Below, in pieces: positions 51,146 through 57,336 of a stretch of DNA of 64,000 nucleotides (its first letter is position 1; each line of letters starts with the position of its first letter). The stretch comes from Desertivirga arenae (lineage in GTDB: Bacteria; Bacteroidota; Bacteroidia; Sphingobacteriales; Sphingobacteriaceae). Made by a program: the position numbers and the translations under genes. The notes beneath the pieces are model-generated. The model saw nothing but the letters and a program-made list of their open reading frames with translations. It was not told the DNA's origin and searched no databases. The stretch is from positions 310,001 through 374,000 of the forward strand of contig NZ_JAFEWE010000003.1 of assembly GCF_017355785.1 (NCBI RefSeq), given 5' to 3'.

Positions 51146-51664
51146 TTAATTATTCAAGTTAAGATACATGGACTGCTCGTTTCTGTCGATCTTGTCAATT
51201 TTACCAAGATAGTTATAGGAAACCTTGGCAAGGCTAATCTTTTCAACTCTGCCACGAATGTCGTAGGATACTTTTTGCTCTCCCACACTTTCAACTCTGC
51301 CATGGATATCATAGCTTATTTTCGTGTCACCTATTTCGCTTAAACGGTCCTGGATATCATAAGAAATACGCTCGTTATCAATTTTGTCAATTCTGCCATG
51401 AAGGTCATAAGAGACTACTACGTTGCCTACTTTGTCGATTCGCCCCTGAAGGTCGTATGATATTGTCCCGTTTGCAAGAATGCTATAACCTGTGATTTCT
51501 CCTCCTTTTGATAAACAGACAAAAAATGAGGTCTTTTCAACTTTGAAACTCAACTCATTCTTCTGTCCTGAGATAAAAGCTGAAACTTTATTCTGGGCCT
51601 TTAGTGCTTTAGGAATTGAAATAAATGAAAGAGATAGAAAAATAAGCAGTACCGAAGTTTTCAT
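51146..51664 (-). CDS. Exported protein of six 16-residue repeats
   Basis: A 172-residue secreted protein: signal peptide to about residue 23 (PKALKAQ), a short beta-rich lead (residues 25-66), then six tandem repeats of exactly 16 residues (68-163). Each begins with I/V-S-Y-D/N and follows the pattern xSYDxxGRxxKIxxxx (ISYDLQGRIDKVG, VSYDLHGRIDKID, ISYDIHGRVESVG). A short tail SMYLNLNN closes it. The repeats should form a stack of beta hairpins. The YD start recalls YD/Rhs-type repeats but the period differs. Function unknown; single gene. Confidence 0.85.
   Translation of the reverse strand: MKTSVLLIFLSLSFISIPKALKAQNKVSAFISGQKNELSFKVEKTSFFVCLSKGGEITGYSILANGTISYDLQGRIDKVGNVVVSYDLHGRIDKIDNERISYDIQDRLSEIGDTKISYDIHGRVESVGEQKVSYDIRGRVEKISLAKVSYNYLGKIDKIDRNEQSMYLNLNN
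51176..51463 (-). repeat. Six 48-bp tandem coding repeats
   Basis: 288 bases = six units of 48 bases in the repeat protein gene. Units are diverged at the nucleotide level but keep the Tyr-Asp and Gly-Arg codon positions, so the array is old and under protein-level selection. Confidence 0.8.
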
Positions 51665-51757
51665 AATATCTAAATAAGTGTGTGTGTGTGTTGAGGGATT
51701 AATTTAATCTATTATATGGTTGATTTACTGAATGCAGCAGCAAAAACCTCAAAATAT

Positions 51758-53566: not shown

Positions 53567-55807
53567 TTACTCTAACAATTCGTCAAAATGAATAGGCAAC
53601 TTAGTGATGCGCTTACCTGTAGCGTGAAATACAGCATTGGCAATAGCAGCAGGCATAGCTACCAGGCCAATCTCTCCTACTCCTTTCACGCCTAATTCAT
53701 TTATCAACTCATCTTTTTCATCTGCAAAGATCACTTCCAATTGATTAACATCGGCATGCGTTGGAATATGGTATTCTCCCAGATTGGGATTTACATACTT
53801 CCCTAAGGTCTCATCAACGATCGACTCTTCATGTAAGGCCTTACTTATTCCCCAGATCATTGACCCACTTATCTGGCTCCGGGCCGTCTTTGGATTAATA
53901 ATTTTACCTGCAGCTACGGCTGTCACTGCTCGCGTTACTGTAATTATTTTCAACTCTTTATCCACCTCCACTTCTACAAAAGAGGCACTATGAGTCATCT
54001 TGCTATATTTCCTTAATTTCAAAGCATGCGGCTTCCCCATATTGGTGGTCTTTATAGCCTGACCTTTGTTAGCTGCAACGATAGCTTCAAAACTGATAAA
54101 GACAGAAGGATCAGATCGTAAGGAGATACGTCCGTTTGCAAATACTACCTCCTTTTCAGAGGCTGCTGCAAGTGGAGATCCCTTAATTCCCTTTGCTTTC
54201 TTTAACATTTTTTCCTTTAAGGCCTTTGCTGCTATAACGATAGCTACCCCAGTTGAGGAGGTCATGGATGAGCCGCCCTGAAACATGGAGAAGGGCTTTT
54301 TGCTATCGCCGTAATTGAATGTTACATCTTCAATGGATAATCCGAATTCATCGGCAGCAATTTGTGTCATTACGGTAAATGTTCCTGTACCAATATCTGT
54401 AACCGCATTGTTTACTACCAGTTTACCTTCTGCAGTGATCATTGCTTCAACGCGGGAAGGAAACTGGTAAGCATCCCATACTCCGGTTGCCATACCATAC
54501 CCCACCAGCTTATTACCACGGGGCATGCTCGCAGGTTGGGGATTTCGCTTATTCCAGCCAAATCGCTCTGCTGCCTGCTGATAGCATTCTCTTAGCGCCT
54601 TGCTGGTAAAGGGCTTTTTAGTTGAAGGATCAATTTCCGCATAATTGCGTAACCGCAATTCCAGGGGATCTACATTCAGCTTATAAGCCAGCTGGTCCAT
54701 GGTGCACTCAATGGCATGCATAGCAGTGGAACCGCCGGGGGCACGCATATCTATTGGTGTAGACAGGTCAAGCGGAACTACTTTATATTCAAAAAGCGTA
54801 TTTTTTGAAGGATATAGACGGTGGCTCCAGGAGGAGATCACTTCGGTATAATCCTCATAAGAAGATGTTTCAACAAAGGCGGAATGTTGCATTGCTGTAA
54901 GTTGCCCGCTTTCATTTGCAGCAAACTTCAACCGTTGAATATTCTGAGGCCGGTGCCCCAAAGAAAACATCTGCTGCCTGTCAAGGGTAACGCGAACATT
55001 CCTCTTCAGATGAAGTGCAGCCATTACTGAGAGAAAAAGCTGGTATTGCGGTCTTAAGCCTGAGCCAAAAGCCCCTCCAACGAAAGGAGCTAATACCCGG
55101 ACGTTCTTATATTGAAGCCCAAATACATTAGCGATAAAAACTTGGTTATTAATTGTCCCCTGCGTTTTATCGTAAATAGTAAGCTTTCCTTCGCCTTCGA
55201 ATACCGTAGTGGTTGCAAAGAGCTCGATGGGATTATGGTGCTCGGGACTATGACGGTACTCAGTATCAACTTTAAAAGGCGCTGCTTCATACGCCTTTTT
55301 AAAGTCACCCTCCGGCTTAGGTGGAGGCGGTTTTAATACAGTCGCCAAACCTTTTTTTGCGTCTCTGGCCTTGTGCAAGCTATTATTAATACACGTTTCG
55401 AAACCCTCCTGTTGATAGTCGACCTTTATAAGGGTAGCGGCATATCGCGCCGTCTCAAAGTCTGTTGCAACAACCAAGGCTATCGGTTGACCGTTGAATT
55501 TTATTTCATCATCATGCAAGGGTTTGAAGACAGTCCCCGGAGGGGCATCCATATCTGCATATTGAAGATCGAACCAAGCCAGCTTAGGCCTGTTTTGATG
55601 TGTTAACACCTCTACAACACCTTCCAATGCCTTTGCACCTGATATATCAATATTTAGAATTTTGCCTTTAGGAATAGTGCTGCTGACTACATAGCCGTAT
55701 AGCAGTCCGGGTACATTATATTCTGCTGCATATTTCGCAGTACCGGTTACCTTTTGCCGGCCCTCTAAGCGGCTTACTGGCTGCCCTACGCTTGGTTTAA
55801 CTGACAT
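53567..55807 (-). CDS. Molybdopterin-binding subunit of aldehyde oxidoreductase (PaoC-like)
   Basis: The 746-residue large subunit of a xanthine oxidase family enzyme. It binds the molybdenum cofactor: GGAFGSG (about 245) and the catalytic Glu712 in GVKGVGEIGL are present, and MRAPGGSTAMHAIECTMDQLA is the conserved centre. N-terminal VGQPVSRLEGRQKVTGTAKYAAEYN matches the family start. Together with the two genes upstream it makes a PaoABC-type heterotrimer oxidising aldehydes to acids. No cofactor-insertion chaperone is next to it. Confidence 0.92.
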   Translation of the reverse strand: MSVKPSVGQPVSRLEGRQKVTGTAKYAAEYNVPGLLYGYVVSSTIPKGKILNIDISGAKALEGVVEVLTHQNRPKLAWFDLQYADMDAPPGTVFKPLHDDEIKFNGQPIALVVATDFETARYAATLIKVDYQQEGFETCINNSLHKARDAKKGLATVLKPPPPKPEGDFKKAYEAAPFKVDTEYRHSPEHHNPIELFATTTVFEGEGKLTIYDKTQGTINNQVFIANVFGLQYKNVRVLAPFVGGAFGSGLRPQYQLFLSVMAALHLKRNVRVTLDRQQMFSLGHRPQNIQRLKFAANESGQLTAMQHSAFVETSSYEDYTEVISSWSHRLYPSKNTLFEYKVVPLDLSTPIDMRAPGGSTAMHAIECTMDQLAYKLNVDPLELRLRNYAEIDPSTKKPFTSKALRECYQQAAERFGWNKRNPQPASMPRGNKLVGYGMATGVWDAYQFPSRVEAMITAEGKLVVNNAVTDIGTGTFTVMTQIAADEFGLSIEDVTFNYGDSKKPFSMFQGGSSMTSSTGVAIVIAAKALKEKMLKKAKGIKGSPLAAASEKEVVFANGRISLRSDPSVFISFEAIVAANKGQAIKTTNMGKPHALKLRKYSKMTHSASFVEVEVDKELKIITVTRAVTAVAAGKIINPKTARSQISGSMIWGISKALHEESIVDETLGKYVNPNLGEYHIPTHADVNQLEVIFADEKDELINELGVKGVGEIGLVAMPAAIANAVFHATGKRITKLPIHFDELLE

Positions 55808-55823
55808 AGATTATCCTCTTATC

Positions 55824-56843
55824 TTAAAGTGATGGCTGAGCTCCAGGACGTTGAGTTGACGGATCTAAGGCCATCATACAATTTCTAACAATAGCCCTTT
55901 TGGCAAGCTCTATCTTAAACTGATTATATTTATATCCCTTGGCTCCCTGCAGTATAAGATCGGCTGCCTGAGCGAAATTTTCTGGTGTTACGGCCTTGCC
56001 TCTTAGCAGGTCTTCCGCTTCAGGAACACGCCAGGGCTTATGTGATACGCCGCCTAGAGCAATCCGAGCATCCTTAATTATCTCTCCTTCGAGTTCCAGA
56101 CCTGTGGCCACAGACACTAAAGCAAAAGCATAAGAATGGCGATCGCGTAACTTCAGGTATGAATAATTTTTTTCAAATCCCTTTGCAGGTAGATCGATAG
56201 ATGTAATAAGTTCACCTTTTTTCAAAGTGTTATCTATATCAGGACGATCACCTGGTAAGCGATGAAAATCTGCAAAAGGTATTCTTCTATCGCCATTAGG
56301 CCCTACAATATTGATCACCGCCCCCAGCGCTGCGAGTCCCACACACATATCTGAGGGGAAAACTGCTATACATTCTTCGCTTGCACCTAAAATAGCATGG
56401 ATACGATTATAACCTTTCAGGGCAGAGCATCCTGAGCCGGGCGATCTTTTATTACAAGGTGAATTAGCATCATAAAAGTAATAACAACGGGTTCGCTGCA
56501 ATAAATTCCCCCCATTCGTAGCCATATTGCGGATTTGAGCAGAAGCACCTGCAAGTATGGCTTTTGATAACAATGGATAACGACTTTCAATTACTGGATG
56601 ATAAGCAGTGTCAGCATTACTTAACAATGCACCTAATCTGACGCCACCTGTACCTGTTGATTTGAGCGCCTTTAGGTCATCGACTTGATTCAAATCTATC
56701 AGCAGATCAGGATGGCTTAAATCATATTTCCACAGATCGATAAGGTTAGTACCCCCTGCAATAAAAGAAGCACCACTATCCGCTGCAACGGCATTCAATG
56801 CTTCTCTGGTTGAATTGACGCGTAAGTATGAAAAGCTATTCAT
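55824..56843 (-). CDS. FAD and 4Fe-4S subunit of aldehyde oxidoreductase (PaoB-like)
   Basis: The 339-residue subunit has the FAD-binding motif FIAGGTNLIDLWK and the four cysteines of the PaoB-type [4Fe-4S] insertion (C120, C130, C139, C158 in RTRCYYFYDANSPCNKRSPGSGC ... ECIAVFPSDMC, written here in pieces because of length). The cluster is characteristic of PaoB rather than of ordinary xanthine dehydrogenase FAD subunits. The ATG here is 36 bases inside a longer frame and overlaps the end of the upstream 2Fe-2S gene by 8 bases, typical coupling. Confidence 0.9.
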   Translation of the reverse strand: MNSFSYLRVNSTREALNAVAADSGASFIAGGTNLIDLWKYDLSHPDLLIDLNQVDDLKALKSTGTGGVRLGALLSNADTAYHPVIESRYPLLSKAILAGASAQIRNMATNGGNLLQRTRCYYFYDANSPCNKRSPGSGCSALKGYNRIHAILGASEECIAVFPSDMCVGLAALGAVINIVGPNGDRRIPFADFHRLPGDRPDIDNTLKKGELITSIDLPAKGFEKNYSYLKLRDRHSYAFALVSVATGLELEGEIIKDARIALGGVSHKPWRVPEAEDLLRGKAVTPENFAQAADLILQGAKGYKYNQFKIELAKRAIVRNCMMALDPSTQRPGAQPSL

Positions 56844-57336
56844 TTGGGGTTTCTCCTTCCATAACTTCCATAATTGCATCTATAATTCCAATGCTGGCAC
56901 CGCATCGACAAAGGTTTCCGCTCATTAGTTCCTTAACTTCTTCCCGGGTTTTCGCTTTACCTTCCTTTAATAATCCAACAGCGCTGCAGATCTGCCCTGG
57001 CGTACAATACCCGCATTGAAAGGCATCATGATCTATAAAAGCTTGTTGTATTGGGTGTAGATCTTCTCCTTCAGCAATCCCTTCAATGGTAGTGATCGCA
57101 GCCCCATCTTTCATAACTGCAAGCGTAAGACAGCTTAAGACGCGCTTTCCGTCGCATAAAACGGTACAAGCTCCGCATTGTCCATGATCACAGCCTTTTT
57201 TGGTGCCGGTTAGATCAAGCCTTTCCCGGATTGCATCGAGCAGGCTGACCCATGGTAGCAGACTAAGTTCGTGGCTCTTCCCATTTATATTCAAACGGAT
57301 AAGTTGTAGACCAGTTGATTGATGAGTATGTTGCAT
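56836..57336 (-). CDS. 2Fe-2S subunit of aldehyde oxidoreductase (PaoA-like)
   Basis: A 166-residue iron-sulfur subunit with both clusters: plant-type C49, C54, C57, C69 and the second cluster C108, C111, C143, C145. It feeds electrons from the molybdenum site to FAD. Unlike E. coli PaoA it has no twin-arginine signal at the N-terminus (MQHTHQSTGLQLIRLNI), so the enzyme is predicted to stay in the cytoplasm. First gene of the three-gene operon. Confidence 0.92.
   Translation of the reverse strand: MQHTHQSTGLQLIRLNINGKSHELSLLPWVSLLDAIRERLDLTGTKKGCDHGQCGACTVLCDGKRVLSCLTLAVMKDGAAITTIEGIAEGEDLHPIQQAFIDHDAFQCGYCTPGQICSAVGLLKEGKAKTREEVKELMSGNLCRCGASIGIIDAIMEVMEGETPNE

What the first reader, a model, noticed from the sequence alone, without database searches (positions are those of the whole stretch)
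51146..51664. Secreted protein with six exact 16-residue repeats
Residues 68-163 divide into six units of exactly 16 with the frame (I/V)SYDxxGRxxKI. No gap or insertion interrupts the array, and the DNA units are diverged, so the periodicity is maintained by protein structure. It resembles YD repeats in start but has a shorter period and lacks the RHS core; it may be an unnamed solenoid.
Basis: seen in the sequence. Interest (0 to 1): 0.55.

Follow-up and report, generated by a model that had tools for sequence, protein, structure and literature searches.

The report
Small exported YD-type beta-sheet repeat protein
This bacterial gene encodes a small exported protein whose six 16-residue repeats are predicted to form the same kind of beta-sheet that builds the shells of much larger bacterial toxins and animal teneurins, but here it stands alone without a toxin, and its job is unknown.

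Summary
In detail: on the minus strand, 51146-51664 encodes a 172-aa protein with a signal peptide and six gapless units of exactly 16 residues (68-163), averaging 42% protein and 53% DNA identity.

No Pfam or NCBIfam model reaches its cut-off and there is no RHS core, but it does not look like a separate solenoid. Profiles of relatives find only teneurins in the PDB below E 0.05 (best 1.9e-6, summed over weak stretches). AlphaFold2 predicts one beta-hairpin per unit in an up-and-down sheet; fold searches rank teneurin, Rhs and Tc shells first. Aligned to 21-residue YD repeats of another Bacteroidota genome, two units lack five residues at one place, the turn between hairpins.

Relatives occur in Sphingobacteriaceae, Hymenobacteraceae, Marinifilaceae and Flavobacteriaceae. 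The four closest have 6, 6, 4 and 4 units (the last of each four imperfect); longer ones have 7-11 recognised. One gene pair differs by two gaps of exactly 48 bases. In one case a single-gene stretch is 94% identical between two classes with unlike flanks.

Verdict: a short-period, toxin-free variant of the YD repeat. Fold and export are predictions; function (a binding scaffold) is inference.

The parts
51146..51664 (-). coding sequence, 172 aa (P0001), exported YD-type repeat protein
   Evidence: relatives found
51596..51664 (-). signal peptide by eye, residues 1-23, cleavage expected at ALKA/Q
   Evidence: sequence; A23 and Q24 are invariant in alignment A5 and Q24 nearly invariant in A1; no signal-peptide predictor was run
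51464..51595 (-). N-terminal cap, residues 24-67, four predicted strands; conserved in the five closest sequences
51416..51463 (-). unit 1, residues 68-83
51368..51415 (-). unit 2, residues 84-99
   Evidence: 0.81 identical to unit 2 of L003
51320..51367 (-). unit 3, residues 100-115
51272..51319 (-). unit 4, residues 116-131
51224..51271 (-). unit 5, residues 132-147
51176..51223 (-). unit 6, residues 148-163 (YN and GK in place of YD and GR)
51149..51175 (-). short C-terminal tail, residues 164-172, low model confidence

Best explanation
The gene makes a small protein that is exported across the inner membrane by its signal peptide and folds as a short strip of the YD-repeat sheet. Each 16-residue unit is one beta-hairpin: strand (K)ISY, turn DxxGR, strand IxKI, then a tight turn (usually G-D/N/S) into the next unit. 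Units add head to tail into a single up-and-down sheet, started by an N-terminal cap of strands and, in many of the long relatives, ended by a helix. Compared with the usual 21-residue YD repeat the loop between hairpins is five residues shorter. With 16 predicted strands, no RHS core and no toxin domain it is unlikely to work as a toxin cocoon. It most likely works as a periplasmic or cell-surface binding scaffold: it offers a regular ladder of side chains to a partner protein, glycan or envelope component, and unit number sets the length. Shown by computation: array, conserved period, family, profile link to YD-shells. Predicted: export, fold. Inferred: binding role, final location, role of length. 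My odds: export 0.95, YD-type sheet 0.85, binding scaffold 0.5.
For: Array and period. In 25 array proteins (the window's and 24 relatives) 179 of 183 spacings between recognised units are exactly 16; the others are 13, 32, 33 and 50 (the recognising matrix was built from 15 of these 25). Profiles of relatives against PDB sequences: teneurin-3 at E 8.8e-6 and 1.9e-6; teneurins are 15 of 16 and 15 of 17 rows up to E 10. HHalign of a two-unit profile (142 overlapping pieces) to 24 canonical YD pairs: probability 91.3, one five-residue gap; letter-reversed control 0.3. Fold: AlphaFold2 mean pLDDT 82.8, ten-residue blocks of 86-96 from 61 to 160, 16 strands; an 11-unit relative gives the same strand pattern plus a C-terminal helix, pLDDT 79.2. 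Foldseek matches with E <= 0.001: 8 of 8 are teneurins for the window model; for the long relative 13 teneurins, one bacterial teneurin-like protein and two RhsP, of 16. VIA-align 2 for the long relative: rows 1-37 of the 50 shown are all Rhs, Tc, teneurin or teneurin-like chains (Z 8.6 to 6.0), then Z drops to 4.0. DxxGR is the hairpin turn in Tse5 (PMC10684867, passages) and each YD repeat is a pair of strands joined by a hairpin (PMC6425310, passages); in the model DIHGR, 119-123, falls between strands 114-118 and 124-127. Precedent for an exported YD protein that binds: Bd0109 of Bdellovibrio binds Bd0108 (PMC3818213 and PMC4267844, passages).
Against: The sequence link is a sum of weak stretches: the best single stretch has an E-value of 0.22 or 0.04, and the single protein reaches only E 0.012. 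Pfam's teneurin YD-shell model scores four of eight relatives at 9.4-13.2 bits against a cut-off of 50, and RHS_repeat does not appear. Global superposition on teneurin is poor (TM 0.46, rmsd 14.9 over 171 columns), and Z 7.2 lies in the range the tool calls common. No coordinates were available, so curvature, closure and the two faces were not measured. AlphaFold2 may lean on known YD structures. The profile of 13 Flavobacteriaceae-type relatives finds no PDB sequence up to E 1. Nothing here shows a ligand, and no neighbour gene of the window points to one.
Confidence: 0.62

Rival explanations
1. It is a parallel beta-solenoid with one coil per 16 residues, a fold unrelated to YD repeats.
For: Constant unit length without gaps is typical of solenoids (recalled); the period differs from the usual YD 21.
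Against: The model has two short strands per unit with the DxxGR stretch between them, and the fold searches return YD-shell sheets. By eye, the one-residue insertions in L064, L015 and the L033/L034/L040 group fall at the DxxGR turn, as expected of hairpins.
Confidence: 0.06
2. It is a closed porin-like barrel of the Bacteroides DUF4595 / BVU_2266-like kind, built of YD-like hairpins.
For: 4ghb and 3tzg appear in the VIA lists (Z 4.2, Z 4.0); 16 predicted strands would suffice for a barrel (inference).
Against: Recognised unit number runs from 3 (plus one imperfect) to 11, so strand number is not fixed; no DUF4595 or BVU_2266-like row for the window protein, and BVU_2266-like matches one of eight relatives, at E 0.25. 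Closure was not measured.
Confidence: 0.1
3. It is a decayed or orphaned fragment of an Rhs toxin.
For: Same repeat type; Rhs loci are known to leave orphan pieces (recalled).
Against: It has its own start, signal peptide and cap, with the same architecture in four relatives 43-56% identical to it. The own genome has no RHS_repeat match at E 0.001. Units 1, 2, 3 and 5 of the window match the same units of L003 best, so the array is old.
Confidence: 0.05
4. It is an immunity or decoy protein that binds effectors of competitors.
For: A DUF4595 lipoprotein of Bacteroides fragilis has been proposed as an immunity protein (PMC11854122, passages). Some relatives sit in cassette-like, repeat-flanked places, as accessory genes often do.
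Against: No PADLOC row for three family members; no toxin family among eight neighbours scanned with Pfam and no neighbour shared with any other locus.
Confidence: 0.08

Closest known systems
Teneurin YD-shell (Pfam PF25023; structures 6fay, 8fia and others)
   Same: YDxxGR-like motif, hairpin per repeat, up-and-down sheet; a stretch of the shell with consecutive 16-residue spacing aligns to the family without gaps.
   Different: About 800 residues and 78 strands forming a hollow tube with a plug (PMC5851990, passages); here 16 predicted strands, no plug, no core.
Rhs / YD-repeat proteins (Pfam PF05593; Rhs effectors, TcB-TcC)
   Same: Repeat motif and DxxGR turn (PMC10684867, passages); fold-search neighbours.
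   Different: Usual period 21 rather than 16; large shells with a protease core and variable toxin end (PMC10684867, passages); no curated match here.
Bd0109 of Bdellovibrio
   Same: YD-repeat protein with a predicted secretion signal that lacks the protease and toxin ends and binds a partner (PMC3818213, PMC4267844, passages).
   Different: Has its partner gene next door and a proposed pilus-linked role; its sequence was not compared here.
DUF4595 / BVU_2266-like porin-like proteins of Bacteroides (4ghb, 3tzg)
   Same: Small Bacteroides proteins that appear in the fold lists at Z about 4.
   Different: No sequence link at curated cut-offs; DUF4595 was not found in the own genome, but no control rang in that search.

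Membership tests
YD / Rhs repeat fold | YDxxGR(L/I) motif repeated in tandem | tested here: met
   among 116 seed units from 15 family members D is 105, turn G 73, R 97 (the seed pattern fixes Y/F and limits these columns)
YD / Rhs repeat fold | one beta-hairpin per repeat, sheet continuous from repeat to repeat | tested here: met
   by prediction only; fold matches
YD / Rhs repeat fold | significant sequence relation to known YD proteins | tested here: met
   profile to teneurin-3, E 1.9e-6 for the whole chain, best single stretch 0.04; hhalign 91.3 to canonical YD; the single sequence reaches only E 0.012
Rhs repeat family as curated (PF05593, PF25023, NCBIfam) | score at or above the curated cut-off | tested here: not met
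   for the window protein; for eight relatives
Rhs repeat family as curated (PF05593, PF25023, NCBIfam) | repeat period of about 21 | tested here: not met
   16 here; in three canonical arrays of G685, 24 of 70 spacings are 21 and most others lie near its multiples; no 16 among the 69 spacings listed
Rhs / Tc toxin proteins | RHS-associated core with protease motif and variable toxin end | tested here: not met
   the protein ends nine residues after the array; no such family
Rhs / Tc / teneurin shells | closed hollow shell | not testable with these tools
   no coordinates available; 16 predicted strands against 78 in teneurin
DUF4595 / BVU_2266-like | curated sequence match | tested here: not met
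   (no such row for P0001 up to E 10)
DUF4595 / BVU_2266-like | porin-like closed fold | tested here: inconclusive
   Z about 4
Type IX secreted proteins | C-terminal sorting domain | tested here: not met
   no NCBIfam row up to E 10; only nine residues follow the array

The most novel reading that the evidence does not exclude
Bacteroidota keep a distinct family of small, toxin-free YD sheets with a fixed 16-residue unit, some of them passed around as single genes. Their open sheet edges let several copies, or copy and partner, join edge to edge into a closed shell or ribbon, so that what toxins and teneurins build from one long chain is here assembled from short modules whose size is tuned by adding or removing 48-base units.
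Probability: 0.1. Interest if true: 0.65.

Novelty: new variant of a known kind. Interest (0 to 1): 0.36.

Why it matters
YD sheets are best known as giant toxin cocoons and teneurins. [quoted passage not shown] A family of exported YD sheets of 128-263 residues without toxin, core or plug, found in several families of one phylum, gives a tractable unit in which to study how the sheet folds, curves and binds, and it is a candidate model for how shells grew by unit duplication. If it proves to be only an inert envelope protein the interest is small.

Tried and rejected
Solenoid: rejected on the predicted strand pattern and fold matches. Toxin fragment: no RHS_repeat match in the own genome; 10 of the 31 genomes searched have one. 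Defence gene: no PADLOC row for three members. Operon logic: ORFs of 29 loci were compared; besides the gene itself five protein clusters occur in three or more loci: a TonB-dependent receptor and a predicted lipoprotein in the same 4 loci, a flavodoxin-fold protein in 4 (fused to UbiA in L083), a sensor-kinase/regulator cluster (by eye) in 3 and a lipoprotein-like one (by eye) in 3; the two Hymenobacteraceae share most of their local order. No neighbour of the window's gene is shared with any other locus. Promoter scan: 5 sites against 3.8 by chance, not used. DUF4595 in 61 genomes: one row, below cut-off; the frame I read there was the wrong one, so it tells nothing. Six of the 26 matching genomes (E 4e-4 to 7e-4, frames of 683-689 aa) look like chance; I read one, L022, metallopeptidase-like by eye, not the other five. 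Of the 29 loci L033-L061 my simple pattern found a unit-bearing frame in 18 and none in 11, of which L040 belongs by eye and L035 looks like chance; the other nine were not followed. One search found nothing; one search found nine named loci.

Integron cassette reading of the mobile copies (L066, L067): the stretch after the gene in L066 folds as a long hairpin (z -2.1 and -3.2 for the two strands) and its ends resemble attC boxes (recalled). The repeat before the gene in L067 also folds (z -3.4 and -3.2), the one before the gene in L066 does not (z 0.5 and -0.2). The integron-integrase model reaches its cut-off in 0 of 7 genomes searched, L065's record not being held; below the cut-off it matches 7 of 7, and its control rings below cut-off in all 14 genomes, as generic recombinases would. 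Left open.

Paper searches. Among the titles they listed (one search listed 20 of 59, 15 of 526, 10 of 15) I saw none on this family; that is a statement about those searches only. SGS1, a mosquito protein in the fold list, is known to me as YD-bearing only from a search listing.

Full report
Observation. The open frame lies on the minus strand, 51664 to 51146, 172 aa. After a signal peptide and about 44 residues come six units of 16 residues, 68-163, without a gap, then nine residues. Within the array the best self-match over shifts 10-30 is 38 identities, against at most 20 in 20,000 shuffles. Units average 42% identity in protein and 53% in DNA; dS could be computed for only 7 of 15 pairs and Tandem Repeats Finder sees nothing. 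So the units are old at the DNA level and the spacing has been kept.

Families. The window protein reaches no curated cut-off in Pfam or NCBIfam, and its best PHROGs row is E 0.036. Eight relatives reach none either; four of the eight score Pfam's teneurin YD-shell model weakly, 9.4 to 13.2 bits against 50, all within model positions 668-726. One row, DUF1949 for L016, comes within 0.2 bits of its cut-off, best on a 14-residue stretch; I take it for chance. PADLOC has nothing for three proteins.

Relatives. In the own family, 26 of 301 genomes match the single protein at E 0.001; six of these look like chance, which leaves 20 including the own genome, one of them (G092) with a short frame of two units. 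The two other genomes held of the own genus have no match at E 0.001. A profile of 19 members matches 30 of 395 genomes sampled over the phylum at 1e-5, the own genome included; a profile of the five closest matches 8 of 395 over the class at 1e-6, the own genome included. Named carriers: Sphingobacteriales MAG RYN_314, Pedobacter puniceum, Sabulibacter ruber, Rufibacter latericius, Marinifilum breve, Wenyingzhuangia sp., Labilibaculum filiforme, a Bacteroidales MAG and Spongiivirga citrea; families. The Pedobacter contig has the length of G083:C1, a genome of the own family, which makes that family Sphingobacteriaceae. Profile comparison joins the close relatives to a Flavobacteriaceae-type group (probability 97.7) and to a group with a longer turn (97.6).

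Anatomy across the family. In 25 array proteins 179 of 183 spacings are 16, the exceptions being 13, 32, 33 and 50 (the scoring matrix was built from 15 of the same 25). Ten further proteins, of the Flavobacteriaceae-type and longer-turn groups, scored 0-2 units in the same call. The window's gene and its four closest relatives carry 6, 6, 6 (window, L003, L004) and 3 plus one imperfect unit twice (L064, L068). The other twenty carry 7 to 11 recognised units; the Sphingobacteriaceae ones mostly share a C-terminal segment with Y, I and N, modelled as a helix in L006. L006 and L008 align with two gaps of exactly 48 bases; the five other close pairs compared show none of 48 (no gap in two; gaps of 30, 9 and 6 in the others). 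Units 1, 2, 3 and 5 of the window match the same units of L003 best (0.56, 0.81, 0.62, 0.56); unit 4 matches L003 unit 3 better than unit 4 (0.62 against 0.50), unit 6 matches unit 2 better than unit 6 (0.62 against 0.56), and the picture against L004 is mixed.

Fold. AlphaFold2 with 16 sequences gives mean pLDDT 82.8 and ten-residue blocks of 86-96 from residue 61 to 160, with two strands per unit. An 11-unit relative gives the same pattern. Foldseek against the PDB: all 8 matches at E 0.001 or better for the window model are teneurins; for the long one 13 teneurins, one bacterial teneurin-like protein and two RhsP, of 16. Superposition over the full length is poor (TM 0.46, rmsd 14.9), which would be expected if curvature differs, but curvature was not measured. 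VIA-align 2 gives Z 7.2 at best for the window (rmsd 5.1 over 101, Tse15) and 8.6 for the long relative (rmsd 4.2 over 184, an Rhs protein). In the second list rows 1-37 of 50 are all YD proteins and the next falls from Z 6.0 to 4.0. Z 7.2 is within what the tool calls common.

Sequence link to YD. The single protein's best PDB match is fly teneurin, E 0.012. Profiles reach teneurin-3 at 8.8e-6 and 1.9e-6 for the whole chain, summed over stretches whose best alone have E 0.22 and 0.04. The best stretch is gapless over 48 and 56 residues, so the teneurin shell contains consecutive 16-residue spacings there. I therefore read the unit as a YD repeat with a shortened inter-hairpin loop. DxxGR is the hairpin turn in Tse5 (PMC10684867, passages); by eye, one-residue insertions in this family fall at the same turn.

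Mobility of some relatives. The Labilibaculum and Wenyingzhuangia genes, from different classes, are 94% identical in DNA over 830 aligned bases that begin about 40 bases before the gene and end 25 after it; no other match joins the two 10.5-kb loci except repeats within the array. In both, a long direct repeat (435 and 567 bases) abuts the gene's upstream side. Repeats of 60 bases or more abut the gene in 7 of 29 loci and bracket it in 4 of 29; the window's gene has none. No integron integrase over cut-off was found. So this type of gene can move alone in some lineages; nothing shows that the window's copy did. The Wenyingzhuangia contig is short (20 kb), so a misplaced contig is not excluded.

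What it does. Evidence is thin. It is exported by sequence, single copy, patchy between species, and the own genome has no RHS_repeat match. In four alike loci it lies near a TonB-dependent receptor and a predicted lipoprotein, which fits an envelope location. An exported YD protein is known to bind a partner: Bd0109 binds Bd0108. I commit to an envelope binding scaffold at 0.5, well below my confidence in the fold.

Membership. It works like a YD sheet and is related to YD proteins by profile, but it fails the curated models, the 21 period and the core/toxin architecture, so I do not file it as an Rhs protein; I call it a short-period variant of the YD repeat.

Noticed in passing
L066 4688-5505 and L067 4704-5532: A gene of this family in Wenyingzhuangia (Flavobacteriia) and Labilibaculum (Bacteroidia) is 94% identical in DNA with unlike flanks and a long direct repeat directly upstream in each: single-gene transfer, possibly cassette-like; mechanism not found.
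   Followed up: partly
window 51678-51691: A (GT)7 run, (CA)7 on the coding strand, lies 13 bases upstream of the gene's ATG; such a run in a leader could vary in length between strains.
   Followed up: no
L033 1195-1734, L034 1498-2037, L040 1480-2010: Another architecture of the same repeat: an exported protein with a probably helical N-terminal part and four units of about 17 residues with a longer turn.
   Followed up: partly
L047, L051, L054: Exported proteins of about 400 aa with a few YD-like units followed by long tails rich in R, N, S and T.
   Followed up: no
L090, L092, L093, L094: In these loci the repeat gene lies near a TonB-dependent receptor gene and a predicted lipoprotein gene that matches no Pfam family (tested in L092); order varies, and L090 has a subtilase gene (PF00082) next to it.
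   Followed up: partly
G095 (L080, L081), G077 (L095, L096): Two genomes carry two copies of the repeat gene each, in G095 33 kb apart.
   Followed up: no
window 53567-57336: A probable molybdenum hydroxylase cluster: MoCo-binding, FAD-binding and 2Fe-2S subunits by Pfam.
   Followed up: partly
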